Origin: Liolophura sinensis
Taxonomy: Eukaryota; Mollusca; Polyplacophora; Chitonida; Chitonidae
Length of the DNA stretch: 64,000 nt
Reading direction: 5' to 3'
Assembly (NCBI RefSeq): GCF_032854445.1
Contig: NC_088295.1
Coordinates: 28,571,385 to 28,635,384 of the forward strand
A program made the translations under genes and the position numbers. Under the pieces are notes generated by a model. It was given only the letters and a program-made list of their open reading frames with translations, did not search any database and was not told the origin of the DNA. Shown here piece after piece: positions 13,111-39,521 of this stretch; position 1 is the stretch's first letter; each line of letters begins with the position of its first letter.

Positions 13111-13346
13111 TCATATAGGATGCAGATAACTTGTCCTTATGGTCTCATACTCAGGCTGCGGTTGGAGATTGTCGCTTTTCCTTATTGTGGTTCGTAGCTG
13201 TCGGAGTTTCCTGATGGTCAATCCCAGAATAACTGCCAGAATGAGAACAATTACGACTAGAACTCCTGAAATAACCCAAGGAGCGATGATGTTGCCATTA
13301 CTGCTGGGGGTTAAGTCCAAACCTCCATCATTTGGGAAAACGCCAT
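13111..13346 (-). CDS. Gene A exon 7: transmembrane helix and cytoplasmic tail
   Basis: 236 nt. Acceptor TTCATTGCAG, the phase-1 split codon gives Asp, and a stop ends at 13111. It encodes a short stalk (GVFPNDGGLDLTPSSNG), helix IIAPWVISGVLVVIVLILAV and onwards, basic RKLRQLR, and the tail. It aligns with gene B exon 7, whose stalk is 12 residues longer. Confidence 0.88.
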
Positions 13347-16300
13347 CTGCAATGAAATAGAATTAGGCTGGGTGTAGTTTGAGGTTTAATAGAAAAAATG
13401 AAGGAAAGTTACCTTATAGCTAATTTAGAGATAAAATGAATATAAAGGTGAATTAATTACATTGCCCGATGAAAATTAATATTCCCCAACACTGTTGAGA
13501 AGGCTGAGTTTCAAAAGCCGTTTCAAACAAATTATTCTGATTGAAATTGTTTAGTTGTTTGAAAGAAAACTTGGCGAGACGAATTATGGAAAAAAATGCC
13601 AAAGCATATTGCCACACGCTGATTACAAACGGTACTTCACCAGGAGTAAGTTATGCACTGCAAAGCGTTTCTCAATGGAAACTAAAGGCAAGTAATTTTG
13701 TCAGCCATTTTGATTTACTCGTAACTTAGTTCAAACACTGTTTGTTTACCTTCGTTGATGTATGTGAACGATTGAGACTTTTGTCCCTGTGTCCTGTTCG
13801 ACTCCGCTGTCACTGTAATAAAATAGTCGTTCTCGTCTTTCAACCCATCGATATCAGCTGAGTATCTTCCCGCAGAGGTTACGTGGTTATCTCCCCTGAT
13901 CACGTGCTTCTTCCCGTTGACTGTCACGAGGAAAATGTCGGCTATGCCTGTTGACAGCATCCATGTTACACGAAGACTGCCGTTAGACAAACGATGAGCT
14001 TGTTCTATGACCGGAGCAGATGGAGCTGAAAGAATCAAGTGTGTAGTTGTATTGTATTATTATTTTTTTTCAAATTTGAAATATTAGATATTTTTAATTT
14101 ATTAACCTGTGCCGTGACTGTTGATTTGTTTTATGTCACCAGATATTCTTACATATCGGCGTTCTGATGCACTAAATTTTGTACGTGGGTGGTACAAAAA
14201 TGAGCTGGAAAATCAGCTTACAAATGTCAGAGAAAGACGGACAATGTCAAATCAACTGTGGTTTGTTATTTAGCACAGCAACAGCCTCACGAACTAAAAG
14301 GCACTCTCACTATTTTGGGACCTTGGTGGTAATACGCGGCTTACAATGCTCGTTTGGTTTTTTGCGTTGTTCTTTGAAGTCCATTTGATTTCCACGAACA
14401 CAGTGATAGATACATTAGGATTTATGGGGCCTTTCCTACGGTACATGGATGTTGGTGGATGGAGAGACACGGAGTGAACGCTTACGAGTGAGTGAGTGCT
14501 TGGGGTTTAACGTCATACTTAACAATTTTTCAGTCATATGACGACGAAGGAATCCTGAGGGTGTATGTAATGTGCCTCCTTGTTGCAGGACGGATTTCCA
14601 CCGCTCTTTTATCCAGTGCTGCTTCACTGAAGGTAAGTAGTCCTCCCCGCCAGAACCACTGATAGGGCCTACGGATGAACCAGTCGTTGAACTATCTCCT
14701 TCATGCTGAACGCCAAGTGAGGAAGTTACAACTTCCTGTTTTAAAGTCTTAAGTGTGACTCGACCCAGGGTTGATTCTGGATCTACCGCTCCCGAAGCGG
14801 ACAATCTACTGATTGTGCTATCCGGACCGGTGAATGCTTACGAATTGGGCGGGTAACTAAGCAGGCTAAACATTACAGAGAAAAAGTAAGAGCATTCAGT
14901 CCCAGGATGGCGCATGCCCGTTAATTCTGAAATGAAGGGCCCTATGGACAATTTCTTTGGAATAAATTGCCATGTCGTGAACTTGGGTCTGGTGAGCCAT
15001 TACTGAGTGTAATATAGGCCTAGGTGGGGAGTTGCGTGTGCAGGTGAGCTGAGAAGGAAGTAAGGCGAAGGCAGCCATATTTGACGCCCGTTGTGGACTG
15101 CAGGCATCATTTTGAAAGAGCTTGTCGGACAATGCGCGAAGAAATGTAGGGTTCACCACTGGTTGCCACTGTGACTACGATGCTCCGCCATCACGTCGTA
15201 AAGAGAAGTTGAAATGGCTTCCTGGGGCTAAAGTACCATACATGTTTGCACAGGAGCTTGTCTCTGTGTCTGAGATATCTCGTATAGGCCTATATATGCA
15301 TAGGGGATACAACATGTTTGGGTAAATTTATGCTTCATTTGTACGATAGAATTTCTAAGAAACACTTAGCGACTTAGCGTACATTGCTCAACAAACAGTG
15401 ATTATGGATATAACGACATTGGCCAAACCATGCTTGTACTTTTACTCTTCCCAGCTGGAATGTCCGTATTGGTTGACGGCTGGTGTTCGAATGACTGTTT
15501 TGACGCATAGATTCAGAGATATACATTCAGATCTGTACTTTTCAACCCATTAAACCAGGAACTCCGTTTTTTTTTTCGACGACGTACGCTAAAAAAACAT
15601 TGCTTCTCTAATCCTGACTTCATATAATCTAGTTATTTGTGAAGCATAAATACCATAATAAGGAATTATCACAAATGTAGGCCATACCTGGCACATCGGC
15701 AGCAAGCCAAATTTCGCTAAAAGCCGTTTTCAATTAATTGGATTTGGACGCGCTCGGCATCGTCCGGGAACAGATAAACTCGTGAAATGATTAAACTGAA
15801 ACCAGTGAGAAGCAAACCAGGTCGACGGACTAATTGTTTGGGAGTCATCACTAATTTGTTTGTTATTTAAAAATATATATATATATAGTCAACTATTGTG
15901 AAACAATGAAATGATCCTAATTTTAGGAAGAGGAAATGAGTGAATAGTAGGAATGGAGTCACCTGATTAGGAAATGGGCTAATTGCGATGTTATGGTCTT
16001 TATTATTAAAATGATTACATTTCGGACGTTTTAGGGAATCGGTGGATAGGGTTCGAGCCGGTTTTTTTTAGTGAAATTGTCCACGTGGAAGTCTATATGA
16101 CCGAAGCTGGGCATTACGGTAGGAACGTCCACCTTAGCTTTGGGCTAATACTAGGCTGACATTTATTTCATTGGCAAAAGAGTGAGTGAATGCTTGAGGT
16201 TTAACGTCGTACTTAACAATTTTTCAGACATATGATGACGAAGGAATCATTAGAATGCATGTAATGTGCCTCCTTGTTGCAGGACGGATTTTCACCGCTC

Positions 16301-19300
16301 TTTTATCTAGTGCTGCTTCATTGAGACGCCCCGCCCGAGCCATTATACTGATATGGGTCAACCAGTCGTTGCACTAACCCTTTCATGCTGATCGCCAAGC
16401 GAGGAAGGTACAACTTCCTCTTTTAAGGTCTTAAGGGTGACTCGACCCAGGATTGACCCTGGATCTAAAGCTCCCGAAGCGGACGCTCTACCAACTGTGC
16501 TTCTTGGGCAAGAGATAGCTGTGTCTTGACTACAGTATATAAACCACCAGTCATACAAAAATAAAGATACATGTACATGTAGGTGAGTTTAACCTCAAAG
16601 CACGTGGCACTTACCGATTGTTCTGTAGTTACTTGTGGTGAGGGTTGACGAGCGTCGCTCCCAAGAATAAAAGGCGAGAACCAACCTGTACGTCTCACCA
16701 GGGACTAGGCCGAACGGCAAACTGGTGTCTACCCACACCTCAGACTCAGTCAAAATCGGACGATCCAGAGGATATGGTCCGAAAGTCCCAACTAATTTTT
16801 TATCTGGCCTCTGAAAAAACAAACAAGGAAGATCATGCTTTGCAATCATTTTACGTATAGGGCAAGAAATAAAGATATCCATCCTCAAAGATATGATTAA
16901 GTGCTGCACATTTTGGCAAACATTTGGTTACCGCGCCCCGACATGATGTACTTACTTTCCACACAACGGAAATACAGTCGGAAAATGCACTGTGTCAGTT
17001 GTAAAATATGTTCTCCAACAGTTATACACGTACAAAGACAAGCGGTCCAAGGCAAGTAGTCGTATATAGGTGGGGGTAGGCCCCTGAAGCTCTGAGATTC
17101 CCGACGTACGGAGACGGGTTCTAAATGCCCTTTTGAACAATAAAAGCATATATAAACAAATGAACAGAGATTTTAATTATAAATTGTGATCATCTGAGAA
17201 GTACGTATAAACCCCAGGTAAACTTGATATTCTAACGCTCTTTGTACGAGAAAACATGCAGGCATGGCTTCAAAAACAATTGCTTACTTGTTTTATTGCC
17301 TTGATGATTATATGTCATGAAATAGGGCAAATACTGCATTAAATTTTGCTGGAGAATAATTTTGACATGTAAGCGACGGAGATCGTTTGACTAGGTACTT
17401 CGAGGCCTTTATTAGGTATAGACGTGCATGTTTTTCACTTCGTGTGTATGGTGAACTACATAGCACGAATCTGTTAATCACGAATCACAATTTGCCATAT
17501 TTCACATATCAATTTTCAATAACGACATGAGCGCTTTTCCCAGGTTTTTAAGTTGAAAGTGGCATCAGGCACCGATTGCCCTCCCCCTTTCCTCCTCTAC
17601 TGCGTGAGGTTGAAAACATGACAGTACTTTCCAAAAACATTAGTAATATAAGGAAGAAAACATTTAACCTTGTATTATCTTGTTTGAAACTATTAATGAA
17701 AATGGAATAGACATAAACCTGAAATCTAAAGTGAGATGAGAATAATACGTATATATATATATGAGATCACTTGCCTTCCACTAACATGAAGTATGTCTCA
17801 GGTATTAGGGTTCGTTTTGGTTTACTCCAGTCATGACGGTTTCAACACCTTCAGTGAATACAGATTCTTGAGTTATAAAACAAACAAATTAATGTATATG
17901 ACAGGGATTTTTTTCTTAGAACCAACATATAATAAGTGATTACCTCAAACTGCCCAAAATATGCGTCAATTCTGGTGTTGTCAAATGTTGCCGCCACTGC
18001 CTTGGTTCCCGTCGCCTCAAGGTTATTAAGGTTAACAGTCTTCGGCCCAAATGGTACTGAAATTCACAACCATGAACATTCAAAGCCGTGCTGTGCGTAG
18101 ATGAGGAAGAACTAGACGAAACTGACAGAGAATTGCTTATTAACAGAGTCACAGTTTTGATTCTTTCAGCCGAAAATAATGTTTGACCTACCATTATGGC
18201 CAAACTCTACCCACAGTGCACAATAAAGTTGGATGTGAGATGGGAGGCTGGTTGAGAACACGTGGCAATGTGACCCGCGGCCATCGTTTTGGGTTGAATA
18301 TTTTGGAAGCCATCACTGTCACATCCAAGTATTAATTTACCAATTTTAACAGGAATTCTGTTGTTTGAGTGATGGTAGAATGTATTTTGTAATTATTATA
18401 ACACAACAGTCTGTCATATTCAACATAATACCCTGTTAGTCTAATAAAATCTGTATGTTGAATTAATAGAACGGGCTAATGTGTGTTATATTTAACAGAA
18501 CAATCTGATGCAATAACATTATACATTCAAGAATCAATCAGACAACAGGCTTTCTGTTAAAATTATTAAAACAGATTAATTATTTTGTGCGCACAATGCT
18601 CAGCAAACAGTTCATTGCCTCCCAACAATTAAAAATGTACGTAGGCCTGCAGAAATAAGAATCAACATTTGCATCGTGTGAAATCTGAATTTCTGGAGTG
18701 AGGAAAATCGTGTAGAACACCAACGAGATTGCAACCGGAGTATACACGGTGCCCTGAGCAGTTTGTAAGGGATTCCCCTTTGTTCTGCAACAGCTCTTTT
18801 TTGTAGTTAAACGAATGGTGCATAGGCCTATCTATAAGCTTCATAACAGCTTTGGTGTGATCTTTTCATACAGCTAAATATTGCTAATAAAACCTGGTTC
18901 CTCAAACAGTAACTGTGATCTGTTTTGTGTCCTTATTGGAGTAAACAGCCGAAGAAAACGTGGATAGTTGTGGGAACTCCCGTATCTTGCCACTTTTGAG
19001 GACAGTGAAGCTGATCATGCCGAGATGTCCATCATGGTTTAACTAGTTGTTTTCACCCCTCACTCCGCAGTCATTGTGCTGCCACAAAATTGCATTTAGG
19101 GCAGGCGTTGGAGTGATCAGTCCTGGGACATTGTCAGGGTAGGTGGTCATTGGGTTTTACATCTTTGTAATTTTAGCGAAGTGGGACGGGTTGTTTTGTG
19201 TTGCCAGTTAAGATCTGCACAGTGTGTGTAATGGTGCGTGACAGGGAAGTTTCCGTATCCAGAGCCTTCAAATTTATTTTAATCGTTTGTACTCTAACTA

Positions 19301-22300
19301 TTAAATGATTAAGGATTTATTTCGTACGGTCTGATTAGGTGCTAGAAGTGGACGTACTTTATTACAGTAAATCAGGAATAAAAATGACACAGTCAATGAC
19401 GCAGAGAAGTTTCAAGCTGAACCCCCTGTATTGAAGCTTCCAGTTCCCTACATCATTTGAGCCCTACCCGAGTGAGGAGCGTGGAGGGGAGGTCTCTGTA
19501 ACTGACTTCATGTTACATAAATTATTTGACAGTTACTATGTAGGTCTTCTGTTTGTAATTTCCGCATTGACAAATTGTATGGCTCAAATAATCCATTGCA
19601 TGCTTCACCATAAAAGTTGTGTTAGAATAGTATGAGATTTTATTAGTACCTGTTGTGACTAGTTATTTGTGGCTACAATACATGTTTGTGCTGAGTGAAA
19701 TCTCCATGGACGTAGGAACGGTGTGAACGGTTCGTACGTAGTGTGATTAGTGGTCTCTACACAACAACCTCAGTATTAGTTATACAGTATTTGTTTACCG
19801 TGTACATGCATTTAGGATGATCTGCTATCTAATGAGAACAGTATGCTTCGTAAGACTTGTGATGTGTACGGAAACTGTGACACAAAGTAATGTTTTTGGG
19901 AAATGCTGTAGCCCCAGTGTATACAGGTTTGTATAAATGTCTTTAATCTGAACTACCTGTAAGATGTATATGTCGAAATACACAGGTATATGACTGGATA
20001 AGCAGTTGGTAATGTCAGTACATATCAGTAACATTAAATGAGTAGAGACTTTTACTAAGAAGTTACAAGTTCAATTTGTAACTTGTAACTTCAAACTAGA
20101 GTAGGTAAACTAATTCTGGATTGAAATTACACGTTACAAGTTACAGGCCTCAATTGCGCTACCGCTTCGGGAGCGGTTGATCCACGATCAGTCCTAGGTG
20201 GTTGACCCGTTACAGTATAATAGCTCTGCAGGGGCGGCTTACTTGCCTTCGGTAAGTCGTCTTAGTGAAACAGCACTAGATAAAAGATCAGTGGAAATCC
20301 GCCCTGCAACAAGGAGGCACATTACATACACCCTAAATATTCCTTCGTCGTCATATGACTGAAAAATTGTTGAGTAAGACGTTAAACCCCAAGCACAAAC
20401 TCGCTCATTCATTTGTGCTATTACCTACGGGATGGCAATGTCTAATCTTCTGTTTTATTTTTCTTTCTTTTATAAATTTTTTCTTTGTTCTATTCAATCT
20501 TCGTCAAATTTTTATTAACAGGTAACTTTCAAACTGGACCTGTGACAAATGAATAAATATTCAGAAGTCAAGAGGGGATACATGGAGTTACTTTGTCACA
20601 AATTTGACGCGCAGGGTTGCCGGGATGGCGTAAAGCAGGTCTTGATATTTGAATGGATCCTCTGTGTGTTGGTGTTTCCTGGGTAGTTACGAAGAAAACT
20701 GGGGGCGAATGTGACAAGGTGATATCTATGGGCTGTCTACCTCCCTACTAGAGGGAGTTTTTCTTTAGTATACTGGTAGAGGCGTGGCCTCCAAAGCCTC
20801 GTTGGTTCAAATCCTCAGCTAGTAACCCCCGTCACACTGACCCACAGATTTTATACACAGCCCTGAATGAAAAAAGATATTGTCAAGTGCTTGTCAGGTT
20901 AAACTTTTGTACTATGCACAACACATCCAATTTTTTTTATCCATTTTTACCCCCATTTCAAACCACATAGTAACTTTTCCTTTCGTTTCCACCTCGGTGA
21001 AATAATTCTCTCTGGGGTGAAAATGGTTATCACATGGGTGGGAATAATTATCACCTGGGTGAAAATAGTTATCACGTGGGTGAAAATAGTTGTCACGTGG
21101 GTGAAAATATTTATCACCTGGGTGGAGACAACGGAAACAATGGAAATGGGACGTGATACAAGAAGCTCTCTTCTCGTTTCCGAACCTATGGACTGAAAAT
21201 GGCAAAGATATTGCTACCAAACGTATACGTATTAACTAGGGGCAAAATACAAACGGCTGGATCGCATGGGTATGAAATATCTGTTGTGACAAGACTTATA
21301 CAATCAGGTGAAAACTGTTGCCACTTGAGTGAAAACGTTTACACTTCTTTTGGAAACCAAAGAAAAAGTTATAACACTTTAAAGAAACTAAAAGTCGTAA
21401 ATAGGCCACCGTAGAAAACAGTGTGTCTGGGCTCACCTGTCGTGACGTCAACTGTTGACACCATATTCTTTATTCCAGACATCAAAGTTACATTAGCACG
21501 GTAAGCCTCTCCATGCACAACATTTAGGTCCCTCCCAAACCTTGTGGCGTTCGTAGGACTAGAACTGACTGAATGGTTAAAGGAAAGTTGTGATAAGGGA
21601 TGCCAAACTACATCCCTCGTGTCGGACAACCGTTTGACAAACAAGTCAACGGAGACCAATTTCGTCTCTGTAACCCCATCTACTGTCCATGACAGCATTG
21701 CCAGAGTGAATGATACATCGCGGAAACTAACGTCTGAAACAAAAGAAAAGTCAAAGAATAAGGCATCGACATTTAGTACACAGGCTGGGCATGAATAGTC
21801 GGTGAATTTATGCCTGTATGGTTTTAAACATAGTGCTCGTTCCTCCTTACTTAACAAATAAGACGATGATCGTCATGCTCAAATCACCTATACATAACGC
21901 ACAGCAGAACTATATCATACCTATATATAAAAGTGAAACCCACGTCCTATATACATGTAGATAAACAAGTATTTGATATCTGTTCAGGTTAGATTCTCGT
22001 GCTTGCGGATTATTTTAAATTATTTTTATATGGGGTCCCCTGTTGGGGAAACCCTTAACTACTACAGGACTGAATGACAAGTAATATGACCTATACTCTA
22101 TAATATGACACTAAGCGTTGAATCTAATGGCTAACCTTTTATAGGATGGCCGTGTTTGCCAAAAGGCCGTATTTGACAAACGCCGTATTTGCCAAGCGGC
22201 TGTGTTTAACAAGAAGCCGCATTTGACAGGAGGCCATATTTCATCTGTTACCGTTGAGCATTTACCAACTGTCATCACACTGTCGTCACTGCTCTGGTTT

Positions 22301-25174
22301 TACTATCTATTCTGTAAGACTTTTATTATGTTCTGTATAAGTCACCACTGTAAAACGTACAGATTCAACACGCACTGTCCTGTTCTATTCGAAATCTCAA
22401 ATGCCCAGAGTTGTCTGCACTTTGCATGCATTCCTTACCCATACACCTGACCGTTTTAAGGGAGTCATACGGCATAAAAATTATACCACAGAGTTTCGTG
22501 ATTGATAACTGTCAATAGTGTTGAATTATTTATATTTTGCATGTGAATACGTCCTTAACCACATGCAAGTAAGAAAAGGGGTTAAACCAAGTGGGAAATA
22601 CACACTATTAGTATTATTACTTCAGTATACTTTAGACTACATATTGCTCTGAACATATACATGCTTTCAATTCACATATTTATATGGTACATGTTATATA
22701 TATGCTTTATATCTACCGAAGTAATGGCCCAATTCACGGTACGGTATGTCGGCCATTTAACAACCGTGCCACCTTGTCACGGTTTTTAAACTGCATAATA
22801 TCGAGCTCGGTTGAAACAACAGACCGACCTTACACAATTCGAAGCTAATGCATCATCCAGGAAATTAAACTGCATGGCTTGGTAATCCCTATTTATATAT
22901 ATTTTATGCAGGAAATATTCACAGAGCTGTCAGTTTTAGAAAAAAAGCGCGTATCTCGACGTCACAACCCGGATCTTCTGTTATAGCGAAATAATACCGT
23001 TCGCGTTTTACTGACGCGGTGGCTAAATCTCCCAGGCCCCAAGATGGACTGTTTTCATGAAACAATATAAGTCGCTATCGCAGCGTAATGGCCTAGAAGC
23101 CTCTCACCAATGCGGTCGCTGTGAGTTCAAGTCCAACTCATGCTGGCCTCCTCTCCGTCCGTACGTGAGAAGGTCTGTCAGCAACCTGCAGATGGTCGTA
23201 GGTTTCCCCAGGCTGTGCCTGGTTTCCTCCCACCATAAAGCTGGCCACTGTCGTATAAGTGAAATATTCTTGAGTACGGCGTAAAACACCAATTAAATAA
23301 ATAAATGAAGAAATCTAATGAAATAATAAGTGTTTAAGATTTTTAGGAAAAATACACAAATTCCCGCTAAGAAAATCCATGTGACTACTTCCATATACAA
23401 GTTGGACTGTTTAGGTAAGCTTCAAGGACATGTCTTAAAAGTCTCCACGGGGGATTTCCATTGGTTACATACCTCTTAGAGTAGGCTCTGTGTATAGCCC
23501 GTGACTTGGGACTTTCTCCTGTAAAATAAACATATTAATTGAATGTTTATTTATTTATTTTCTTTCTTTCTTTATTTATTTATTTGATTCAAATTTACAG
23601 TTCTGCTACAGTCTTCTATATTAAGTGTGGTCAGGTTGAGAGTGGAGGAAACCGGACTGAATGTCTGAATGACACCACCGCCCTTCACTAGGTGCCTGGA
23701 AACCCCCCCCCCCCCCCCCCCGACACAAAGCACAGCAGAACCTGAAGAGCTGGATTCGAACATGCGATCATATATTATTGTCCTTCAGCTGCGTCGAAAA
23801 CCACTCTTGTTCACAGAATGATTATTGACAGTCCATATATATATGATTTATATATATGATATCATATATATATGATTTATTTATTGATTTGATTGGTGTT
23901 TTACGCGGTAGTCAAGAATAGACATACTTATGAGGTTATAGAGCTCTTTACGCAGAAGGTCATATAGCAACTGTGGTTCGTAATGAAATAATCTAGAATA
24001 TCGCGTCAAATATCGTATGGGCCAGTTGAATTAATACAGCAAGATTATGATTTGAGATTATAATTTGAGGTTAAGGTATCGTCTAATTGGCGTGATGTTC
24101 TCGATTTCATTTTCATTTGATAGCAGATTTCTTACAAATATTAAGTGTTTATTTTCCGCTTGCATCTGTATTTGTGATAACAAATTTTGCAGTGTATTTG
24201 TTACAATATTTTCATCAAATGACGGCTACATGGTTTGCACTCCACAGAAGGCTGGTAACAGAAGAAATAGCTATATATATATATATATACTACTATATCA
24301 TGTCTTTCAATATTTCGGACACACGAGGCGCGGTTCAATCCCGGTCACGAATGTAGGAAATTTGTAGACTCCCCTGATCTCTGTGTGTTATTATAATAGA
24401 GAGGTTAACATATTCGTGAATGACGTACAAGTAACGTTTGACGTAATCGTTAACTAAGTATGATGTCACGCTTAGCAAATCAAGGTTTGTTTGTTTGTTT
24501 GATTGGTGTTTTCCGCCGTACTCAAGAATATTTCACTAATACGACGGCGGCCAGCATTATGGCGTATGGAGATTGGACAAATAGCCGACAGACCCAAATG
24601 TAGGTCATACCGTCTACTCGTTTTTTACGAGCTGAGTATTTGTAATGCATTTCCGAGTCAGTATTTGAGGGTTTTAACTGTTTGGATGTAAAACAAAACT
24701 GAAAACGATTTACTCATGATCGAATCGTTAGTCCATCGGAAATATCTATTTTTGTTTGCAAAAAAGTAGAAATTGAGCCGTGAAAACATACTGTGTTTAC
24801 TTGGCGTGGGAGAGCTCATTAGTAACTTGCCAAAGGTAAGTGATTTGTCCCGTACACTCCGGTTTCCTCCACGCATAAAGTTAATCACCGTCATCGTGTT
24901 GCAAATATATTAAAGCAGCATTTGCTTAACTGACTCTAAGTGTATTAGTATGTTGAAGAATGACTACAGATTGAATGAAAACATAGAAAGCATAGATATA
25001 TAATGTAACACGTACATAAATATAAAGTGATATATCTGTTTTCGAGGTATATATGCGGTAAATTCTCACCGATTGTAGAGCATCCCAGTGTAAAGAATTC
25101 CCCAGGACGATTTCCAATAGAATTACAGAGACCACATGTATAATCCTGTGTCGTATAGAAAGAAACTTTCTCAT
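13111..25174 (-). CDS. Gene A: three-FN3 single-pass receptor-like protein, 7 exons
   Basis: CDS = 25174-25070, 23518-23473, 21733-21437, 18056-17944, 16810-16615, 14025-13750, 13346-13111: 1269 nt, 422 aa. All introns are GT-AG and all phases agree (0,1,1,0,1,1). The layout is a signal peptide (about 1-25) and a linker, then FN3-like 1 (51-149, W66), FN3-like 2 (151-252, with the hallmark GLVPGETYRL around Y228) and FN3 3 (253-344), then a transmembrane helix (about 364-389) with a basic stop-transfer (RKLRQLR). The tail is about 33 residues, with Y411 and Y418 in EYETIRTSYLHPI. NxS/T sites suggest glycosylation. It should be a type I plasma-membrane protein; ligand and signalling are unknown. 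I know no named homologue. Gene B at 29854-39521 is a tandem paralogue whose matching exon borders support this model. Confidence 0.82.
13750..14025 (-). CDS. Gene A exon 6: membrane-proximal FN3 domain
   Basis: 276 nt, phase 1 at both ends, the usual arrangement for a shufflable FN3 module. It starts APSAPVI, then has LRVTWML (the conserved FN3 Trp) and YFITVTAESN (strand F/G pattern). About 77% identical by my hand count to gene B exon 6. Donor GTAAAC at 13749. Confidence 0.9.
14486..14830 (-). mobile_element. SINE-2, near full length, in gene A intron 5
   Basis: The reverse complement reads from a tRNA-like head (GTAGATCCAGAATCAACCC) through GAAGTTGTAACTTCCTC, CAACGACTGGTTC, AGCAGCACTGGATAAAAGAGC, GGAGGCACATTACAT and CGTCGTCATATGACTG to a CACTCACTCACTC tail. 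It lies between exons 5 and 6, antisense-neutral (same strand as the gene). Confidence 0.85.
14831..16179. other. Intron 5 sequence without further features
   Basis: No exon found. Two copies of the octamer TAGGCCTA (15015-15022 and 15285-15292) and a short TA run near 15870 are the only patterns. Confidence 0.4.
16180..16508 (-). mobile_element. SINE-2 copy in gene A intron 5
   Basis: Same family and orientation as 14486-14830. The tail side begins GAGTGAGTGAATGCTTG, the body includes CAGACATATGATGACG and TTGTTGCAGGACGG, and the head ends at CCCGAAGCGGACGCTCTACC. Confidence 0.85.
16615..16810 (-). CDS. Gene A exon 5: C-terminal part of FN3 domain 2
   Basis: 196 nt between acceptor TTTTTTCAG and a strong donor GTAAGT. 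It starts in phase 0 (RPDKKLVG) and ends phase 1 after YRTI. It carries GLVPGETYRLVLAF, the typical FN3 E-F loop and Tyr. The gene B counterpart has exactly the same length but a poor donor. Confidence 0.85.
16811..17943. other. Gene A intron 4
   Basis: No repeats of the window's families and no exon were found here; one short TATATATATA run lies near 17750. Confidence 0.4.
17944..18056 (-). CDS. Gene A exon 4: N-terminal part of FN3 domain 2
   Basis: 113 nt, acceptor ATTTCAG, donor GTAATC. Reads PFGPKTVNLNNLEATG and on to TRIDAYFGQFE. Least conserved exon against gene B (about 53% identity), though RIDAYFG is kept. Confidence 0.82.
18057..20050. other. Gene A intron 3, left part
   Basis: No exon. 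AT-rich stretch 18350-18560 has loosely repeated AACAGANNAATCTG-like words, too degenerate to call. One TAGGCCTA at 18823-18830. Confidence 0.35.
20060..20091. repeat. Perfect 12-bp hairpin
   Basis: AAGTTACAAGTT (20060-20071) and AACTTGTAACTT (20080-20091) are perfect inverted repeats with an 8-nt loop. A further GTTACAAGTTACAG lies at about 20132-20146, just before the SINE-2 copy. Could be the insertion-site remnant of a small inverted-repeat element. Confidence 0.6.
20155..20415 (+). mobile_element. SINE-2, internally deleted copy
   Basis: The head (CTACCGCTTCGGGAGCGG) is followed closely by GGTTGACCCGTTACAGTATAATAG, so the middle of the head-proximal body is missing. It then continues to CGTCGTCATATGACTG and a degraded CTCGCTCATTC tail. 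Inserted antisense in gene A intron 3. Confidence 0.8.
20765..20840 (+). mobile_element. tRNA-like sequence, probably a SINE head or tRNA pseudogene
   Basis: TAGTATACTGGTAGAGGC resembles an A-box and GGTTCAAATCC a B-box, spaced as in a tRNA. The anticodon loop would read CCA. The acceptor stem does not pair and the T-stem is poor, so a working tRNA is unlikely. Confidence 0.35.
21016..21120. repeat. Five 21-bp tandem units, each with an E-box
   Basis: Five exact-length units of 21 bp start GGTGAAAATAGTTATCAC and end in CACATG, CACCTG, CACGTG, CACGTG and CACCTG. Degenerate units flank both sides (20991-21015, about 21305-21345). They lie in gene A intron 3, about 320 bp from exon 3. The minus-strand reading HPRDNYF repeated is a by-product of 21 being a multiple of three. 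Confidence 0.85.
21437..21733 (-). CDS. Gene A exon 3: FN3-like domain 1
   Basis: 297 nt, phase 1 at both ends, acceptor TTGTTTCAG, donor GTGAGC. Encodes DVSFRDVSFTLAMLSWTVDG, then LNVVHGEAYRANVTLMSG and VDVTT: an Ig/FN3-like beta-sandwich pattern with a core Trp and YRANVTL as strand F. About 75% identical to gene B exon 3. Confidence 0.88.
22105..22340 (+). repeat. Interspersed element 'P' copy with internal 17-bp repeats
   Basis: At 22141-22240 a word of about 17 bp (GGCCGTATTTGACAAAC and variants) is repeated six times. The unrepeated body follows: GAGCATTTACCAACTG, CACTGTCGTCACTGCTCTGG, TTTTACTATCTATTCTGTAAGAC. The same body occurs at 35140-35750, 42187-42860 and 63590-64000. No coding capacity seen. 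Confidence 0.7.
23085..23313 (+). mobile_element. SINE-1, full length (reference copy in this window)
   Basis: Structure from 5' to 3': tRNA-like head with B-box GAGTTCAAGTCC, conserved body (AAGGTCTGTCAGCAACC, GGTCGTAGGTTTCC, TGCCTGGTTTCCTCCCACC, GTCGTATAAGTG, AAATATTCTTGAGTACGGCG) and tail CAATTAAATAAATAAATG. Typical Pol III-transcribed, LINE-dependent SINE layout. Antisense in gene A intron 2. Confidence 0.9.
23473..23518 (-). CDS. Gene A exon 2: 46-nt linker exon
   Basis: Acceptor ATTTTACAG, donor GTATGT. Reads EKVPSHGLYTEPTLR plus one base. Too short to notice by ORF length; found by its match to gene B exon 2 at 35788-35833 (EAVPSHGLYTEPTLK), same length and borders. Confidence 0.8.
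23703..23721. repeat. Poly-C tract (19 C)
   Basis: Uninterrupted run of cytosines in gene A intron 1; likely length-variable and a possible assembly weak point. Confidence 0.9.
23832..23883. repeat. AT-rich palindromic microsatellite
   Basis: CATATATATATGATTTATA and its inverse surround GATATC, forming nested inverted repeats of ATATAT. Runs directly into a SINE-1 tail remnant. Confidence 0.7.
23884..23940 (-). mobile_element. SINE-1 tail remnant
   Basis: TTGATTTGATTGGTGTTTTACGCGGTAGTCAAGAATA is the reverse complement of the last 45 bp or so of SINE-1. Confidence 0.6.
24489..24600 (-). mobile_element. SINE-1 fragment (3' half)
   Basis: TTTGATTGGTGTTTTCCGCCGTACTCAAGAATATTTCAC, then ACGACGGCGGCCAGCATTATGG. 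Truncated before the tRNA-like head. In gene A intron 1. Confidence 0.75.
24822..24912 (+). mobile_element. SINE-3 fragment
   Basis: AACTTGCCAAAGGTAAGTGATTTGTCCCGTACACTCCGG and following match the middle and 3' parts of the element at 28240-28490 and the fragment at 39105-39245. Confidence 0.5.
25070..25174 (-). CDS. Gene A exon 1: start codon and signal peptide
   Basis: ATG at 25174, then 35 whole codons to donor GTGAGA. MRKFLSIRHR is a basic n-region, IIHVVSVILLEIVLG a hydrophobic core. Exact same length as gene B exon 1, whose codon 30 (TGG here) is TAG. The in-frame sequence upstream of the ATG has no closer start. Confidence 0.82.
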
Positions 25175-29853: not shown

Positions 29854-30125
29854 TCAAATAGGATGCAGGTAACTAGTCCTTATGGTATCATAGTTATTCT
29901 GGGTTTGAAAATAGTCACTTTCCTCTGTTAGGTATCGTGACTGTCTGAATTTCCTGATGGTTATTCCTAGAACAACTGCAAGGCTGAGAACAATCACGAA
30001 TAGAATTCCTGAAATAACCCAAGGAGCGATGACGTTGCCATTAATGCCACGAACGTCATGAGATGGGGGCTTGGTACCACTGGCAGTGGTTGTGTCCCGC
30101 TCTCCAGCATTTGGGAAAACGCCAT
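29854..30125 (-). CDS. Gene B exon 7: transmembrane helix and tail
   Basis: 272 nt with acceptor TTCATTGCAG identical to gene A. It has a longer stalk (GERDTTTASGTKPPSHDVRG), then helix NVIAPWVISGILFVIVLSLA and onwards, basic RKFRQSR, tail SDYFQTQNNYDTIRTSYLHPI and a TGA stop. The open frame is intact. Confidence 0.82.
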
Positions 30126-30437: not shown

Positions 30438-30439
30438 AA

Positions 30440-30494
<55 letters not shown>

Positions 30495-30546: not shown

Positions 30547-30816
30547 CTGTGTTATTGAATGTGAAGGACCCCAATCCCTTTGTCCTGTTCGACTCCGCAG
30601 TCACTTGAATAATATAACTGGGCTCGTTTTTCAACCCATTGATATCAGCAGAGTATCTTCCCGCAGAGGTTACGTGGCTACTTTCCCTGATCACGTGTTT
30701 TTTCCCGTTGACTGTCACCAGGAAAATATCGGCTATGCCTGTTGACAGCATCCATGTTACACGAAGACTGCCGTTAGACAAACGTTGAACTTGATCTATG
30801 ACCGGAACAGAAGGAG
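30547..30816 (-). CDS. Gene B exon 6: membrane-proximal FN3 domain
   Basis: 270 nt, phase 1 both ends, acceptor CTTTCAG, donor GTAAAT. APSVPVIDQ, LRVTWMLSTGIADIFLVTV and YIIQVTAESN match gene A; two codons shorter near the 3' end. Confidence 0.85.
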
Positions 30817-30829
30817 CTGAAAGAATCAA

Positions 30830-32577: not shown

Positions 32578-32773
32578 CGACGGTTTTGTAGTTACTTCCG
32601 GTGAGGGTTGTCGAGCGCCGTCCCCAGGAATTGAAGCCGATAACCACCCTGTACGTCTGCCCGGGAACTAGGTGGAACGGTAAATTGATGTCTATGCTCA
32701 CTGCAGAGTTAGTAAAAAGGGGACTATCCAGAGGAACTGGTCCAAAAAACAATGCTAATTTTGTATCTGGCTG
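32578..32773 (-). CDS. Gene B exon 5: FN3 domain 2, C-terminal part, weak donor
   Basis: 196 nt as in gene A. QPDTKLALFFGP, HLVPGQTYRVVIGF and SNYKTV align with gene A residues. The donor reads TCG|GTTTGC, keeping GT but losing the A-A-G-T consensus. Unspliced, the frame runs on into the intron and stops at 32498. Confidence 0.75.
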
Positions 32774-32930
32774 CTGAAAAAAAAATAGATCAATATGTTT
32801 GGTTCTTTGCACCGTACACATATTATTTGTACGCAACATGTGTGGACGGTTGACACTACGCTCTTTGAACATATGGAAAATCAAGGGGAGTAACTAAGAT
32901 TCTACCAGTGTGAATTGTAGCCCGAAACTC

Positions 32931-33311
32931 CACTGACGTTAGGTTTTACAAACGTTTTATTCGACCAAGGTTAACCCCAGACCAACGTCACAGCATGCTC
33001 CATTTAAAAACCTGATGCAATTGCCTTGGCAGTTCGTCACTGGACAATAATTACAAAGCCAATGCGTCTCCACGACGTGATGTTTGCAGACACTTATATA
33101 GGCCTTATCTCTTTGTGTGTCGATTTATCGCAAGCACAACGTCGTTCGGTTATTTCCAAGGCCGCTCAGAGGTGATGTTCAAAGCGATTGGCTGTGTTTA
33201 CAGCCTTGATATATTTAACAAGGACAGGTAACTGCATCAGGCTTTTAAATGGAGCGCTCTGTTGTCTGGCCATCCCTGGCCGTACAAAATTTTTGACAAA
33301 GCAAACGTCAG
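32931..33311. mobile_element. Fold-back (MITE-like) element with ~100-bp inverted arms
   Basis: The left arm ACTGACGTTAGGTTTTACAA and on (from 32931) through GCTCCATTTAAAA and CCTGATGCAATTGCC is imperfectly inverted in the right arm. The right arm ends AAACGTCAGT at 33311 and contains GGTAACTGCATCAGG and TTTTAAATGGAGC. No coding capacity. It lies in gene B intron 4. Target-site duplication not clear. Confidence 0.6.
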
Positions 33312-33765
33312 TACAATCTCTGACTCGCGAACTGTCACCCTTGAAAACTCGCTGAGACAACTACGCCGTCAGCGGCAAATTGTACGTACCTGTGACTGGT
33401 TGTAAATAAGTTAGTTTCGCGTCTTTACCAGCAAAACTTGATTGTAAGTAGCATTACATTGTTACCTTTTGGTCTGTGCAGTTTTTCTTAAAAGACAAGG
33501 CCTTATTTGTTCAATTTATCAGTTCTACATCGATGTCAAATAATACCACACATGATGTATACATCATGTCAATATTTCAGAGTAAGTCTATGCTAACTAT
33601 ATTACCGGTATGAAAGCGGACAGTCTTAATTTTTGGGTACGAACTTTAGGTTCAGCAGAGACATAGCATGGTTTTACATTGCACGTGTATAAGTTATCTA
33701 ACCCATACTAATAATAGGTGGGGGGAGAGTGGGGTGGAGAAGCGGGGTGGTGGTGGATGCAGATC

Positions 33766-33945
33766 TGTTGGCCGAGGTGGTTAACGCACCTGCGTGGAGC
33801 AATGACGTGGGAAGGTCTTGTAGCAACCTGCGGATTGGTCGTGGATTTCTTCCAGGCTCTCCCAGTTTCCTCCCATCATAATGCTGGCCGCCGTCGTACA
33901 AGTGAAATATTCTTATGTACGGCGTAGATTAGCAATCAAAAGAAT
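33766..33945 (+). mobile_element. SINE-1, near full length
   Basis: Head TTGGCCGAGGTGGTTAACGC (A-box-like), then body GGGAAGGTCTTGTAGCAACC, TTTCCTCCCATCATAATGC and GCCGTCGTACAAGTG, ending GTACGGCGTAGATTAGCAATC. Antisense in gene B intron 4. Confidence 0.8.
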
Positions 33946-34003
33946 TCCACAAGTATCAGTCAATATCACAATGACTTTTTAAGTGCTACTAGTAATTAAT
34001 TAC

Positions 34004-34116
34004 CTCGAATTCTCCAAAATATGCGTCAATCCGATTGTAACCAAAATTTGCCCTCAATTCCTTAAAATGTGATCTGTCTAGACTGTCAAGATGAACAATC
34101 TTTGGGCCATATGGTA
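34004..34116 (-). CDS. Gene B exon 4: FN3 domain 2, N-terminal part
   Basis: 113 nt, acceptor GATTACAG, donor GTAATT. PYGPKIVHLDSLDRSHFKE and on to NRIDAYFGEFE. Intron 3 has shrunk to about 200 bp here against 3.4 kb in gene A. Confidence 0.8.
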
Positions 34117-34319
34117 CTGTAATCCATAAACATCAACATTAATAGTGAGTCAAACGAAGAATCCAATCTCCATCTCCAGTGTCAAACGAATTAGACCATT
34201 TCTGAAATGAAATTTTGTGTGTCATCCTGAAAATGTCAGTATGAATTTTTTCATCATTAAAAACTTATTTAAAAATTTAACTGGACGGAAGTGGATGAAT
34301 AAAGAACATCCGGGCGTAC

Positions 34320-34619
34320 CTGTCGTGACGTCAACTGTTGACGTCATATTTTTTATTCCAGAGTACAGCGTTACGTTAGCACGGTAAGCCTGTCCAGGAT
34401 AACCCACATTTAGGTCCCTCTGAAACCTTATAGCGTGCGTAGAATTACCAGTGACTGGGTGGTTAAAGGAAAGTTGCAATAAAGACTCCCAAAGCACATC
34501 CCCTGTTTTAAACAATTTTTTAACAAACATCTCAACGGAGACCAATTTCGCCTCTGTAACCCCATCTACTGTCCATGACAGCATTGCCAGAGTGGATGAT
34601 ACATCGCGGAAACTAACGT
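34320..34619 (-). CDS. Gene B exon 3: FN3-like domain 1
   Basis: 300 nt, phase 1 both ends, acceptor TTGTTTCAG, donor GTACGC. DVSFRDVSSTLAMLSWTVDG and YRANVTLYSGIKNM match gene A; one codon longer. Confidence 0.85.
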
Positions 34620-35139
34620 CTGAAACAAAAGAAAAGTCACAGAATACGGTATGCACACCTAGTACACAGACTGGACATGAATGGTCGGTGAATTTATGTC
34701 TGTATGGTTTTAAACATCTATGTGTCGTTTCTCCTTACTTAACAAATCAGACGATGATTGCCATGCTCAAATCACCAAATCACCATGTGAGACATGGACA
34801 CGGGCACACAGGTTGGTGGTCTATAGCGAATCTTATATCTGAGATCTGTTTAATTCTTCCAAGCTTAACTGTCAGAAATACAGACCTGTATTCACTAAAC
34901 ATCAATTCACTATGCAGCAACATACATTGTTTCACCTTACTTGTGTGGTTTGTGTCTCAGCCAGGATTCAAAATGATCTGTTGTTATTACAATAATTACA
35001 TAATTACAATAATAATTTTGACGATAAATAATATTTCATATTGGAAGGCTCTACGACTACTTCCTAAGTTTCTTTATGTAACTTATGTAACTAATAAATT
35101 GTAGTTAACATCCCAGCATTATTTTCACTATTATTGTTG

Positions 35140-35760
35140 CTGTAATATGAGGCCGTATTTCACCGGTTACGTTTAACCATTTTCCAGCTACGGTACCTGT
35201 CGTCGCTGGCGTGGTTTTTCTCTCTGTGCTGTGCGTCTTTTAGGGTACTGTATTCCTGCATGAGTCTTGATTCTGCTGGTGGACTAAGTATTCAGAGGCC
35301 TGGTCCCTTTGCAATGTTTTTATGTTATTGTGTATTAAATGTGATGACCACACAGCATATTTAGTAATTCTAGACCAGTGACGTCTATAAAATTGCGGTT
35401 AACATCGCTGAATTTTTACCAAATTCTGCTGAAGCCATTGTGCTAGGGGGCGTGTAATTTGCTACTACTTAGAATAAAACCCTTGCTGAGGTAAACTGAC
35501 GACGCCGTATTTCACCAGTTACCTGTGACAATTAGCTAGCTATCACATTTTCGCTCTATGCTGTACATCTTAATTATATCTCAATTTACATTTATGTTGA
35601 ACAGTTAGAACAAAATTCTATAACTGAGATAAATTGACGAGCCTGGATTTTACGGGGTACATGTGTGAGCATTTGCCAACTGTTGTCGCTATCGTCGCTG
35701 CTCTGGTTTTGTTCTCCACGCTGTAGCCTTTTACACTACAGACGTATTGTAGTTCTCATG
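35140..35760 (+). repeat. Interspersed element 'P', one full and two partial units
   Basis: GAGGCCGTATTTCACCGGTTACG starts a ~340-bp unit that includes CTGCTGGTGGACTAAG, TAATTCTAGACCAGTGACG and CCCTTGCTGAGGTAAACTG. It restarts at about 35510 (GCCGTATTTCACCAGTTACC) and again at about 35635. Antisense in gene B intron 2; gene A has another copy at 22105-22340 in the equivalent intron. Confidence 0.7.
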
Positions 35761-35787
35761 TGACATGTTTCGAAGGTGTCCACATAC

Positions 35788-35833
35788 CTTTTAAAGTAGG
35801 CTCTGTGTACAGTCCGTGGCTTGGGACGGCCTC
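35788..35833 (-). CDS. Gene B exon 2: 46-nt linker exon
   Basis: Acceptor GCTTTACAG, donor GTATGT. EAVPSHGLYTEPTLK plus one base; 13 of 15 residues identical to gene A exon 2. Confidence 0.8.
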
Positions 35834-36764
35834 CTGTAAAGCGAACATAAAGATTAACTTACAGATTATACACTGATTAGGGTTTAGCGTGATAATCTCA
35901 AGAATATTTCACTCCCATAACCGAGTTCACGTTAATTGTTGACGACCGACTTTACTAAGAACCTGATTAACGTCCTAGCTCAAGTCACCAGCGAATAGCG
36001 TCAAACGTCATATGAAACAACTGCAGATACTGCAGTCACTACGACGCGATTCAAGGCAGCCACCTAATCTTTACGAAGATCATTCGGCCAACAAAAAGCT
36101 CGTTCGGCCCCAGACAGAGGCAGTGTTGAGGTATGACATCGATATTTTGGATGATCCCATCCAAGCTGTGTACTGCAGTGACTTCGTTCCTTCCCTGTAC
36201 CACCCACTGGTCTCAACACAGCTCAGGTCAGTGATGCAATGAGGAACAAATTCGTTTGATTCTAAATGCCCATCAACTGGACGTAGGCCGCTTTTGTCCA
36301 TTTGTATAGCGAATTTTACGGAGAGATTGACGACGCTTGACTAATCACAAATGTGAGATCTAATTTCTTCGTCGTGGAGCCTGTTAGCGTTAGATTTTTT
36401 TAGTGTCCGCTGTGATATATTGCCGTGGTTGAGTACTGTGAAGGAACGTTGACTATATTCACTGCTCCCCAGGGTATCCAAAACCATAACTTTGGCAATG
36501 ACTATAGCTGTGTCACTCCTGGCAGGGCAAAATAGGTTTGCTTGACTAACTTTGTAAAAGGTCCGATTTAATTTTGTTCTGGTAACAGCTTTATTTCATT
36601 TGTAATATTGTTGCTTTTTGGGAAGTTGTGGTATATGTAACTAATGTTGTGGTGTATTCAGAGCTTTCCTCATATACGACTGTTTCTCCATAATCGTCCA
36701 GAGGAAACATTTACAAGTTCTACTAACTTTACTGACCGATGTAGGGTATATTTTACCCAAAGCG

Positions 36765-36860
36765 CGATCCCTTGGGTTCTGCCCGTTTTCCTCCCACCAT
36801 AATGCTGGCCGCCGTCATATAAGTGAAATATTCTTGAAAACTACGATCAAATGAACAATT
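36765..36860 (+). mobile_element. SINE-1 3' fragment
   Basis: TTTCCTCCCACCATAATGCTGG, then CCGCCGTCATATAAGTG and AAATATTCTTGAAAAC; lacks the head. In gene B intron 1. Confidence 0.7.
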
Positions 36861-37693
36861 AAATACTTGAGACATGCGATAGAAAAGGTTTTAAATTGCT
36901 GATTTCTTTCGCTTACTTGTCTTTGCAGGGTTCTTGAATCTGGATTAGAACCCATGATTTCATTGGTGAAGGGTCACTTGGAAGCAGTAGAGCGTGGTTA
37001 TTTATGACAAATCGTGTACTAGTATCAATGTGACGAGGGGAATAATTCCGTATCTGTCGGGATGGGGCTAGAGAAAGCTTTAACCGTGTCAGCCATTGTC
37101 ATGTGAATTGAGTTCTTTCTCATCATTGTACACATCGAGATGTGTTGCCTACTGAACAGGCAGTACACGTTGTTTCTACTGCTGTTCCTTGATAAGAACA
37201 TGTTCGAATCGGCAGTCGGAATACAAAGATGTAGAAAACTAAGAAAGGCTCACTAGTTTTCATTTTCCCCACATCAGAAACTATCACTATTTTATATCGA
37301 TACATTTAGATGTATATATACATGTATATACAGCCTGAAGTAATTGAACAAAGATGTTCAAAATTTGTGACCATATTTCTGAAAAACTTCCAGGTGTTTT
37401 GCATTGGGGTTTAACGTCACATTTAAACGTTGTTTCTTGTGTCTTTCTGCGCAATCGCGTTCTTAGTATCGAGATATTTCCACTTCTGCCTGCCTAGAAT
37501 GCCATTCTGAAGATACCAGAGACCAGACATAGCACACCAAACCAACCAGTTACAGTATGCGGGCACCGGACAGACCAGAAACCAGACATGACCAGCCATT
37601 CAAACACCACTCAATTACTGTGGGAGGACACCTGGCTAAGCATGTAGACAACAGACACACCAGGTCGACCAAGCGCCGGCAATGATGACACTT

Positions 37694-38960
37694 AGCTGAC
37701 CAATCGCCAAAAATGGCACGCCACCCTGTCACAGTATGCTGACATGTAGCTAAGCAAACGCAAAACATGGCGCGCCAACCTGTCACAGCATTCTGATATG
37801 TAGCTAAGCAAACGCCAAACATGGCACACCACCCTGTCACAGCACGCTGACATGTAGCGAAGCAGACGCCAAACATGGCACCCCTATCCTGTCACAGCAT
37901 GCTGACATGTAGCTAAGCAAACGCCAAACATGGCAAGCCATCCTGTCACAGCATTCTGACATGTACCTAAGCAAACGCCAAACATGGCTCGCCACCCTGT
38001 CACAGCATGCTGACATTTAGCTAAACAAACGCCAAACATGGCACGCCAACCTGTCACAGCATGCTGACATGTAGCTAAGCAAACGCCAAACATGGCACGC
38101 CAACCTGTCACGGCATGCTGACGTACCTAAGCAAACGCCAAACATGGCTCGCCAACCTGTCACAGCATGCTGACACGTACCTAAGCAAATGCCAAACATG
38201 GCTCGCCAACCTGTCACGGCATGCTGACGTACCTAAGCAAACGCCAAACATGGCTCGCCAACCAGTCACGGTATGCTGACTTGTAGCTAAGCAAACGCCA
38301 AACATGGCACGCCAACCTGTCACAGCATGCTGACATGTAGCTAAGCAAACGCCAAACATGGCACGCCAACCTGTCACGGCATGTTGACATTTAGCTAAGC
38401 AAACGCCAAACATGGCACGGCACCCTTTCATAACAGGCTGACATGTAACTAATCAAACACCAAACATGTATTGATAATGTACTGACATCGGGTGGACCAA
38501 ACATGGCGCGCCACCCGGTTACAGAATGTTCACACCGAGCTGACAAGAAAACTAGTCATAACACATCACCGGAAACACACCGGCATGCGGATACCGGGCT
38601 GATCAAACACCAGAAATAACCACTACTCAGTCATAATATGCTTGCACCCAACAGACCAAACATGACGCAGCACCTGGCAACAGTATGCCTATACCGGACT
38701 GATCAAACACCAGAAATGACACCCAGTCACAGTATTCTGACACCGAGCTGACCAGACACCTGAAATGACACGCCACTCCATCATAATATACTGACACCAG
38801 ACTGAACAAACACCAGAAGCGCCACCTGGTCACAGTATGCTGACACCGAACTGACCAGACACCGGTCATGACACACCACTCGGTCACGGTATTTGAACAC
38901 CGGGCTGATAAAACATCAAAAATGACCCGCTACCCAATCACAGTATACTGACACTGATGT
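37694..38960. repeat. 54-bp minisatellite, ~14 clear copies plus degenerate units
   Basis: Unit GCTAAGCAAACGCCAAACATGG, then CACGCCAACCTGTCACAG and CATGCTGACATGTA, 54 bp. Clear copies run to about 38470. From 38471 to 38960 a related but diverged unit continues (ACACCGGNCTGANCAAACACCAGAAATGAC). Some units lost about 4 bp. Because 54 is a multiple of three, the minus strand shows repeated VTGWRAMFGVCLATCQHA frames; these are not taken as protein. In gene B intron 1. Confidence 0.93.
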
Positions 38961-39104
38961 AACCCAAGTTTGCTTTTGGTTATTACAAATCTCGCATTCC
39001 AGTTTCAAATGGTGAAATGATAACGCTTATTATATATATCGACGAACATACATCATTTACTTAACTCACATGTAGAGCAATCGTATCAGTATTCTGAACT
39101 CTCA

Positions 39105-39245
39105 TAACAGGAGCCACACGTGGGAAAATTTCCAACGGTCAGTGGTTTATCCCGGGCACTCTCGTCTAGTCCAAACACAAAGCTGGGCGCCGTAGTGTGT
39201 ATGAGTGAAAAATTCTTCAATACGTATGATGCCCTGCAGCAATCA
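39105..39245 (+). mobile_element. SINE-3 fragment
   Basis: GGTCAGTGGTTTATCCCGGGCACTC, then AAAGCTGGGCGCCGTAGTG and AAAATTCTTCAATACG; matches 28240-28490 and 24822-24912. Confidence 0.5.
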
Positions 39246-39416
39246 TACTATATATGATTTGAAAAGACCTAAAGAAAATAGAGACCATATACGAATCTCA
39301 TACCTATGTATAGGCCTATCTAATCAGTGTATAGAGATGCCTATGGCAACGATATATTCCATACGTATATAGGAATACACCTGTATCTGTTTTCGGCCTA
39401 TAAGCTAAATTCTCAC

Positions 39417-39521
39417 TAATTGTAGATCTTTCTAAGACAGGGATTTCACAAGGATGGTTTCCAGGAGAATTAAAAATACCACAGCTATAATCCTATTTCG
39501 TAGAGACAGAAAGAAATTCAT
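39417..39521 (-). pseudogene. Gene B exon 1: signal-peptide exon with in-frame TAG at codon 30
   Basis: The ATG at 39521 begins MNFFLSLRNRIIAVVFLILLETILVKSLS, then TAG (39434-39432), then KDLQL and donor GTGAGA. Length 105 nt, as in gene A exon 1. The stop corresponds to Trp30 of gene A and is one G-to-A change from TGG. Confidence 0.75.

What the first reader, a model, noticed from the sequence alone, without database searches (positions are those of the whole stretch)
13111..39521. Tandem pair of seven-exon FN3 receptor-like genes of unknown family
Two same-strand genes, about 16.7 kb apart at their 3' ends, share seven exons, all intron phases (0,1,1,0,1,1) and four identical exon lengths. 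The full gene A model (422 aa) has a signal peptide, three FN3-like domains, one transmembrane helix and a roughly 33-residue tail. I know of no named family with this ectodomain plus a tail ending YxTIRTSYLHPI. It may be a lineage-restricted surface receptor family in molluscs, possibly with more copies outside the window.
Basis: partly seen in the sequence, partly recalled or inferred. Interest (0 to 1): 0.75.

Follow-up and report, generated by a model that had tools for sequence, protein, structure and literature searches.

The report
Tandem chiton receptor-like gene pair
In a chiton genome, two neighbouring genes descend from one duplication and look like a cell-surface receptor with a short inner tail; one copy reads intact, the other carries likely damage, and what they bind is unknown.

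Summary
The pair is real. Gene A (minus strand, 25174-13111) joins seven GT-AG exons into 422 aa: signal-like start, three modules, one TM helix, 33-residue tail. Gene B (39521-29854) repeats the seven exons with phases 0,1,1,0,1,1 and four equal lengths; proteins 70% identical. Corrections: B has an in-frame TAG in exon 1 and a weak exon-5 donor. Only module 3 tests as FN3; module 2 is marginal, module 1 unsupported. Searches of the assembly showed no third copy. Assembly figures match the chiton Liolophura sinensis, first published as L. japonica. Module 3 is nearest to FN3 domains of an array 4 Mb away that includes kinase-like exons. Selection is weak but detectable (omega 0.60); divergence is patchy, as gene conversion would leave it. 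Best reading: a fast-evolving single-pass recognition receptor without enzyme domain. Closest known analogue: snail grctm/PTC TM1 proteins, whose tail-length criterion it fails. No transcripts and no other mollusc genome could be examined.

The parts
25070..25174 (-). Gene A exon 1, 105 nt: start codon and signal-peptide-like segment (hydrophobic core VVSVILLEIVLG), leaves phase 0
   Evidence: frame, GTGAGA donor; hydrophobicity
23473..23518 (-). Gene A exon 2, 46 nt (EKVPSHGLYTEPTLR)
21437..21733 (-). Gene A exon 3, 297 nt: module 1, FN3-like only by pattern
17944..18056 (-). Gene A exon 4, 113 nt: first part of module 2
16615..16810 (-). Gene A exon 5, 196 nt: second part of module 2 (LVPGETYRL)
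13750..14025 (-). Gene A exon 6, 276 nt: module 3, an FN3 domain
13111..13346 (-). Gene A exon 7, 236 nt: stalk, TM helix, 33-aa tail ending EYETIRTSYLHPI, stop
39417..39521 (-). Gene B exon 1, 105 nt: start and signal-like segment, in-frame TAG at codon 30
35788..35833 (-). Gene B exon 2, 46 nt
34320..34619 (-). Gene B exon 3, 300 nt: module 1
34004..34116 (-). Gene B exon 4, 113 nt: first part of module 2
32578..32773 (-). Gene B exon 5, 196 nt: second part of module 2; weak donor TCG|GTTTGC
30547..30816 (-). Gene B exon 6, 270 nt: module 3 (FN3)
29854..30125 (-). Gene B exon 7, 272 nt: stalk (12 residues longer), TM helix, tail ending NYDTIRTSYLHPI, stop
21734..21888 (-). Intronic block before gene A exon 3, matching gene B 34620-34776; stops in the exon-3 frame in both copies, so not coding there

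Best explanation
Two tandem copies of one gene encode a type I membrane glycoprotein of the chiton: signal peptide, three stacked modules (module 3 an FN3 fold, the other two probably divergent beta-sandwiches), a short variable stalk, one TM helix and a 33-residue tail without an enzyme domain. Most likely it acts as a cell-surface recognition or adhesion receptor: the modules bind a ligand or a partner on another cell, and the tail either docks SH2 proteins when the tyrosine of YETI/YDTI is phosphorylated or serves as a YxxI internalisation signal. Shown by sequence: exon structure, duplication, FN3 in module 3, a hydrophobic TM segment, no detected enzyme domain, constraint on the tail end. 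Inferred: signal peptide, surface location, ligand binding, use of the tyrosine. Copy A is probably functional; copy B either lost its normal exon 1 or uses other splice sites, and may be a recent pseudogene.
For: Complete 1,269-nt frame with six GT-AG introns in A. Every exon lies in a conserved block between the copies, while most 60-nt flanks are much less alike (exception: the 5' flank of exon 3, 85%). dN 0.21, dS 0.35, omega 0.60; the last ten codons have three synonymous and no nonsynonymous difference. One stop against 7.5 expected without selection if all changes sit on one copy. Pfam fn3 over cut-off for module 3 in both proteins; a confident model of exon 6 whose best solved match is FN3 domain 1 of Ihog, E 3.1e-3, TM-score 0.69 by query length. 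Best hydrophobic 19-mer 3.28 (Kyte-Doolittle), five N-glycosylation motifs and no cysteine in A.
Against: No transcript or protein evidence. Constraint is weak: codon-position differences are nearly even, omega is 0.83 for exon 5 and 1.6 for the stalk on few sites. B carries a stop and a weak donor. Modules 1 and 2 have no Pfam match at E up to 10. Foldseek has no match at E 0.001 or below, and its second hit is an archaeal pilus. The tyrosine motif is not a strict ITIM (position -2 is P in A, N in B; consensus recalled).
Confidence: 0.55

Rival explanations
1. An enzyme-less offshoot of an FN3 receptor kinase or phosphatase of this genome: part of an ectodomain kept on a TM anchor, acting as decoy or co-receptor for the parent receptor's ligand.
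For: Beyond the window, the only places matched by whole A or whole B at E up to 10 are three FN3 places at C1:32.66-32.74 Mb, all by module 3. Downstream of the 32.66 Mb domains lie a TM exon and kinase-like exons (PF07714 E 1.2e-12 on three frames joined). Module 3 scores 35.8 (A) and 36.9 (B) bits with a five-member profile of such domains; 0 of 489 and 0 of 493 scored shuffles reach it; hhalign probability 96%.
Against: The genome matches are weak (E 0.16 at best). Two of the five profile members are hits of A itself, so the ranking is partly circular. Modules 1 and 2 do not convincingly match the array's other FN3 type. FN3s in phosphatase neighbourhoods (C1:51.31 and C7:14.30 Mb) rank next, so this FN3 class is not special to one receptor type.
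Confidence: 0.2
2. A chiton counterpart of the snail polymorphic TM1 loci (GRC/PTC1, PTC2): a hyperdiverse immune or parasite-recognition receptor whose copies are reshuffled by gene conversion.
For: Same outline: neighbouring single-pass genes with FN3 and a large extracellular part (PMC4361660 and PMC10875847, passages). High dN relative to dS. Synonymous divergence is uneven among exons (chi-square p = 4e-4; so is nonsynonymous divergence, p = 0.005) and a 56-nt identical run in exon 6 is unexpected (shuffle P 0.0006), as after gene conversion.
Against: The tail is 33 residues, while the seven GRC TM1 proteins have more than 50 on either side of the TM helix. Only two copies found here. No polymorphism data. 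No sequence comparison with grctm proteins was made.
Confidence: 0.12
3. Decaying genes: B is a pseudogene and A is under little constraint, with no present receptor role.
For: B exon-1 TAG and weak exon-5 donor; omega 0.60 and even codon-position differences.
Against: No frameshift in either model, length differences all in frame, fewer stops than expected, tail end invariant despite synonymous changes. Other donors in the right phase exist for B (39450, score 58.9; 39480, 63.6; 32596, 69.9).
Confidence: 0.13

Closest known systems
Snail GRC/PTC1 TM1 proteins grctm2-grctm5 (Biomphalaria)
   Same: Single-pass membrane proteins with a large beta-rich extracellular part holding FN3, duplicated copies, fast evolution (PMC4361660, PMC10875847; passages seen)
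   Different: The seven snail GRC TM1 proteins have more than 50 residues on both sides of the TM helix and some of their B. sudanica orthologues carry TMEM154; here the tail is 33 residues, two copies were found, and no TMEM154 match appeared
FN3 array with TM and kinase-like exons around C1:32.65 Mb of the same genome
   Same: Module 3 is related to one of its FN3 types
   Different: Many FN3 domains and kinase-like exons; A and B end in a stop after a 33-aa tail
Receptor-type tyrosine phosphatases with FN3 ectodomains
   Same: FN3 domains on a TM anchor (architecture recalled); by z-score among 33 FN3s, domains in phosphatase neighbourhoods at C1:51.31 and C7:14.30 Mb rank third and fourth
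   Different: No phosphatase domain in A or B
FNDC4/FNDC5 (FN3-TM-short tail)
   Same: FN3 on a TM anchor with short tail (architecture recalled); the FNDC5 chain 4lsd is a weak match to module 3, E 0.2
   Different: FNDC5 has one FN3 (recalled); here three modules; the match is not significant

Membership tests
FN3-domain proteins | At least one domain over Pfam's curated fn3 cut-off | tested here: met
   PF00041, 30.9 bits (A) and 30.6 bits (B) against 25; module 3 only
FN3-domain proteins | Modules 1 and 2 are FN3 too | tested here: inconclusive
   No Pfam family at E up to 10. Scored shuffles reaching the observed score, A then B: chiton FN3 profile, module 1 49 of 478 and 0 of 469, module 2 122 of 422 and 12 of 375; Y profile, module 1 74 of 471 and 46 of 478, module 2 6 of 403 and 0 of 355; X profile, module 1 118 of 500 and 40 of 498, module 2 16 of 458 and 5 of 444. 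Observed scores are all 5 bits or less
GRC/PTC TM1 class | One TM helix with more than 50 residues on either side | tested here: not met
   Tail of 33 residues; criterion in PMC4361660
GRC/PTC TM1 class | Hyperdiverse alleles | not testable with these tools
   One assembly only
Receptor tyrosine kinases / phosphatases | Cytoplasmic kinase or phosphatase domain | tested here: not met
   No such Pfam match at E up to 10; exon 7 ends in a stop in both copies
Class I/II cytokine receptors | Disulfide-forming cysteines (recalled) | tested here: not met
   No cysteine in the A or B models
ITIM receptors | (S/I/V/L)xYxx(I/V/L) in the tail (recalled) | tested here: not met
   PEYETI in A and NNYDTI in B: position -2 is P or N; checked by eye

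The most novel reading that the evidence does not exclude
A previously undescribed chiton recognition receptor, analogous to but independent of the snail PTC loci, in which tandem copies exchange exons (3 and 6 above all) by gene conversion while stalk and module 2 diverge, keeping a fixed signalling tail end.
Probability: 0.1. Interest if true: 0.6.

Novelty: new member of a known kind. Interest (0 to 1): 0.3.

Why it matters
If expressed, it adds an uncharacterised receptor-like gene to a class, single-pass FN3 proteins in gene clusters, that has been tied to parasite resistance in snails. In chitons it would give a small, testable case of how such receptors arise, exchange exons and decay. 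As it stands it is one gene plus a possibly broken twin, without expression data, so the wider importance is modest.

Tried and rejected
More copies: searches of the assembly with whole A, whole B, exon 7, module 1 and module 2 gave only the two loci, weak module-3 hits at C1:32.66-32.74 Mb and one weak hit with stops at C4:9.26 Mb (E 0.37). The tool scores only its best candidates and the genome has N stretches, so absence is not proven.

Phosphatase origin: my first guess for the C1:32.66 Mb FN3s was a receptor phosphatase. The exons just downstream encode a TM segment and kinase-like pieces instead. Phosphatase exons do lie on the same strand at C1:32.56, 32.78 and 32.96 Mb, so a phosphatase receptor is not excluded for the other FN3 places of that region.

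Two-domain unit X-Y of the array as the source of modules 2-3: module 3 fits Y; module 2 does not convincingly fit X (16 of 458 and 5 of 444 scored shuffles reach it; hhalign probability 10%).

Internal repeats: modules 1 and 2, and 1 and 3, do not resemble each other (118 and 171 of 300 shuffles reach the score); 2 and 3 do weakly (7 of 300).

Coding extension of exon 3 into the conserved intronic block: rejected, stops in frame in both copies.

Cytokine receptor: rejected, no cysteine. Solved relatives by sequence: none for modules 1 and 2 at E up to 10; for module 3 none below E 0.04. Literature (open-licence library only): 'Liolophura' with 'fibronectin type III' lists one paper, on a pearl oyster microRNA (listing); the four terms fibronectin type III, receptor tyrosine kinase, expansion, chiton give no paper. 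A broader search led to the snail papers (listings).

Full report
Where it is. The window is G000:C1:28571385-28635384; contig C1 has 96,433,062 bases and the genome 609,464,459 bases in 632 contigs. A paper on the chiton assembly GCA_032854445.1 gives a longest scaffold of 96,433,062 bases, 632 scaffolds and 609,495,693 bases (PMC11068029, passages seen). The totals differ by 31,234 bases, but the longest contig and the count agree. The authors later corrected the species from Liolophura japonica to L. sinensis (PMC12441733, whole text).

Gene models. On the minus strand, gene A has exons 25174-25070, 23518-23473, 21733-21437, 18056-17944, 16810-16615, 14025-13750 and 13346-13111; the joined frame is 1,269 nt, 422 aa plus stop, with GT-AG introns in phases 0,1,1,0,1,1. 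Gene B has 39521-39417, 35833-35788, 34619-34320, 34116-34004, 32773-32578, 30816-30547 and 30125-29854 in the same phases. Exons 1, 2, 4 and 5 are equal in length; exons 3, 6 and 7 differ by 3, 6 and 36 nt. The proteins are 70% identical (B from the residue after its stop).

Is it coding? A blastn comparison of the two loci has a conserved block on every exon; the other blocks are dispersed repeats, plus a stretch running 155 nt upstream of exon 3. NG86 on 419 codons gives dN 0.210, dS 0.348, omega 0.602. The synonymous/nonsynonymous contrast has Fisher p = 5e-4, but differences by codon position are 89, 74 and 98, not significantly uneven. If the 261 differences were unselected and all on one copy, 7.5 stops would be expected; one is seen (P of one or fewer 0.0046; with half the differences 4.0 expected, P 0.088). 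The last ten codons hold three synonymous and no nonsynonymous change. I conclude that the pair has been under weak to moderate purifying selection.

Copy B. Read like A, B's exon 1 has TAG at codon 30. Donor scores by a generic matrix written from memory: A exons 1-6 81, 86, 95, 78, 87, 81; B exons 1-6 68, 88, 84, 83, 64, 86; of 4,138 GT sites on that strand the median is 53.8 and the 75th percentile 62.2. Donors in the right phase 33 and 63 nt upstream of the exon-1 end (58.9 and 63.6) would leave the stop out, and one at 32596 (69.9) could replace the weak exon-5 donor. Whether B is alive cannot be decided here.

Domains. Pfam finds fn3 once in each protein, 30.9 and 30.6 bits against a cut-off of 25; modules 1 and 2 give nothing at E up to 10. 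AlphaFold on the two-row exon-6 alignment gives pLDDT 83.8. Foldseek ranks an FN3 domain of Ihog first at E 3.1e-3 and an archaeal pilus second, with many FN3 domains and monobodies among the 50 rows shown and none at 0.001 or below. Exon 3 gives pLDDT 39.6 and says nothing. With a profile of 31 of the 148 listed FN3 matches of this genome, module 3 scores 25.2 (A) and 18.7 (B) bits, reached by 0 of 489 and 0 of 483 scored shuffles; module 1 is reached by 49 of 478 and 0 of 469, module 2 by 122 of 422 and 12 of 375. By eye all three modules carry a tyrosine near the F-strand position (GEAYRANV, GETYRLVL, NDYFITV), so three FN3-like modules remain plausible, but only one is shown.

Relatives. 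Searches of the assembly with A, B, exon 7, module 1 and module 2 found no third copy; the search is limited and N stretches exist, so absence is not proven. The weak hits of module 3 (E 0.16 to 5) lie at C1:32.66-32.74 Mb. Downstream of the first of them are a TM exon and kinase-like exons (PF07714, E 1.2e-12 on three joined frames); phosphatase exons lie further off at C1:32.56, 32.78 and 32.96 Mb. A five-member profile (three domains of that type, one from C1:32.91 Mb, one from C1:51.31 Mb) scores 35.8 and 36.9 bits on module 3; two members were hits of A itself. Among 33 FN3 domains compared pairwise, those two ranked first and second for both copies by z-score; two from phosphatase neighbourhoods came next. 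Module 3 therefore probably shares ancestry with FN3s of receptor enzymes; the rest of the protein has no identified source.

Patchwork. Synonymous divergence differs among exons (chi-square p = 4e-4), from 0.20-0.25 in exons 6 and 3 to above 1 in exon 4; nonsynonymous divergence differs too (p = 0.005). Exon 6 has a 56-nt identical run (shuffle P 0.0006). Gene conversion is the simplest reading; local constraint is a rival.

Mechanism. The anatomy is that of a type I membrane protein without enzyme domain. The tail's YETI/YDTI resembles pYExI SH2 sites and YxxI sorting signals (both recalled), so signalling by docking or internalisation is inferred, not shown.

Known kinds. Snail grctm2-5 combine FN3 with a single TM helix in a fast-evolving cluster linked to schistosome resistance (PMC4361660 and PMC10875847, passages; PMC7494358, passages). 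They differ by tail length and cluster size; sequence relation was not tested. I rate the find a new member of a known kind, of modest interest unless expression and diversity data raise it.

Noticed in passing
window 6306-7481, minus strand: A 392-codon uninterrupted frame with ADH_N and ADH_zinc_N domains, resembling mitochondrial trans-2-enoyl-CoA reductase (name recalled); the only match in the assembly at E 0.001 or below (four candidates scored), so this enzyme seems to be encoded without introns.
   Followed up: partly
G000:C1:32594500-32751000 (L001, L002, L011, L012, L014-L017): Array of one FN3 type: 19 of 27 matches are 64-100% identical to the query and lie within 160 kb; near 32.65 Mb it adjoins TM and kinase-like exons. 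A long, recently expanded FN3 receptor or several.
   Followed up: partly
window 21734-21888 and 34620-34776: Noncoding intronic block before exon 3, about as conserved as the exon and starting abruptly; conversion tract, regulatory element or old insertion.
   Followed up: partly
window 37682-38468: 54-nt tandem repeat, 14.6 copies, in gene B's first intron.
   Followed up: no
G000 contigs C3, C7, C15 and others: Many similar-scoring tyrosine-phosphatase exons at regular spacing (151 matches; 150 of 397 candidates scored): phosphatase genes may be strongly expanded in this chiton.
   Followed up: no
window 1302-3344: 38-nt tandem repeat with 54 copies.
   Followed up: no
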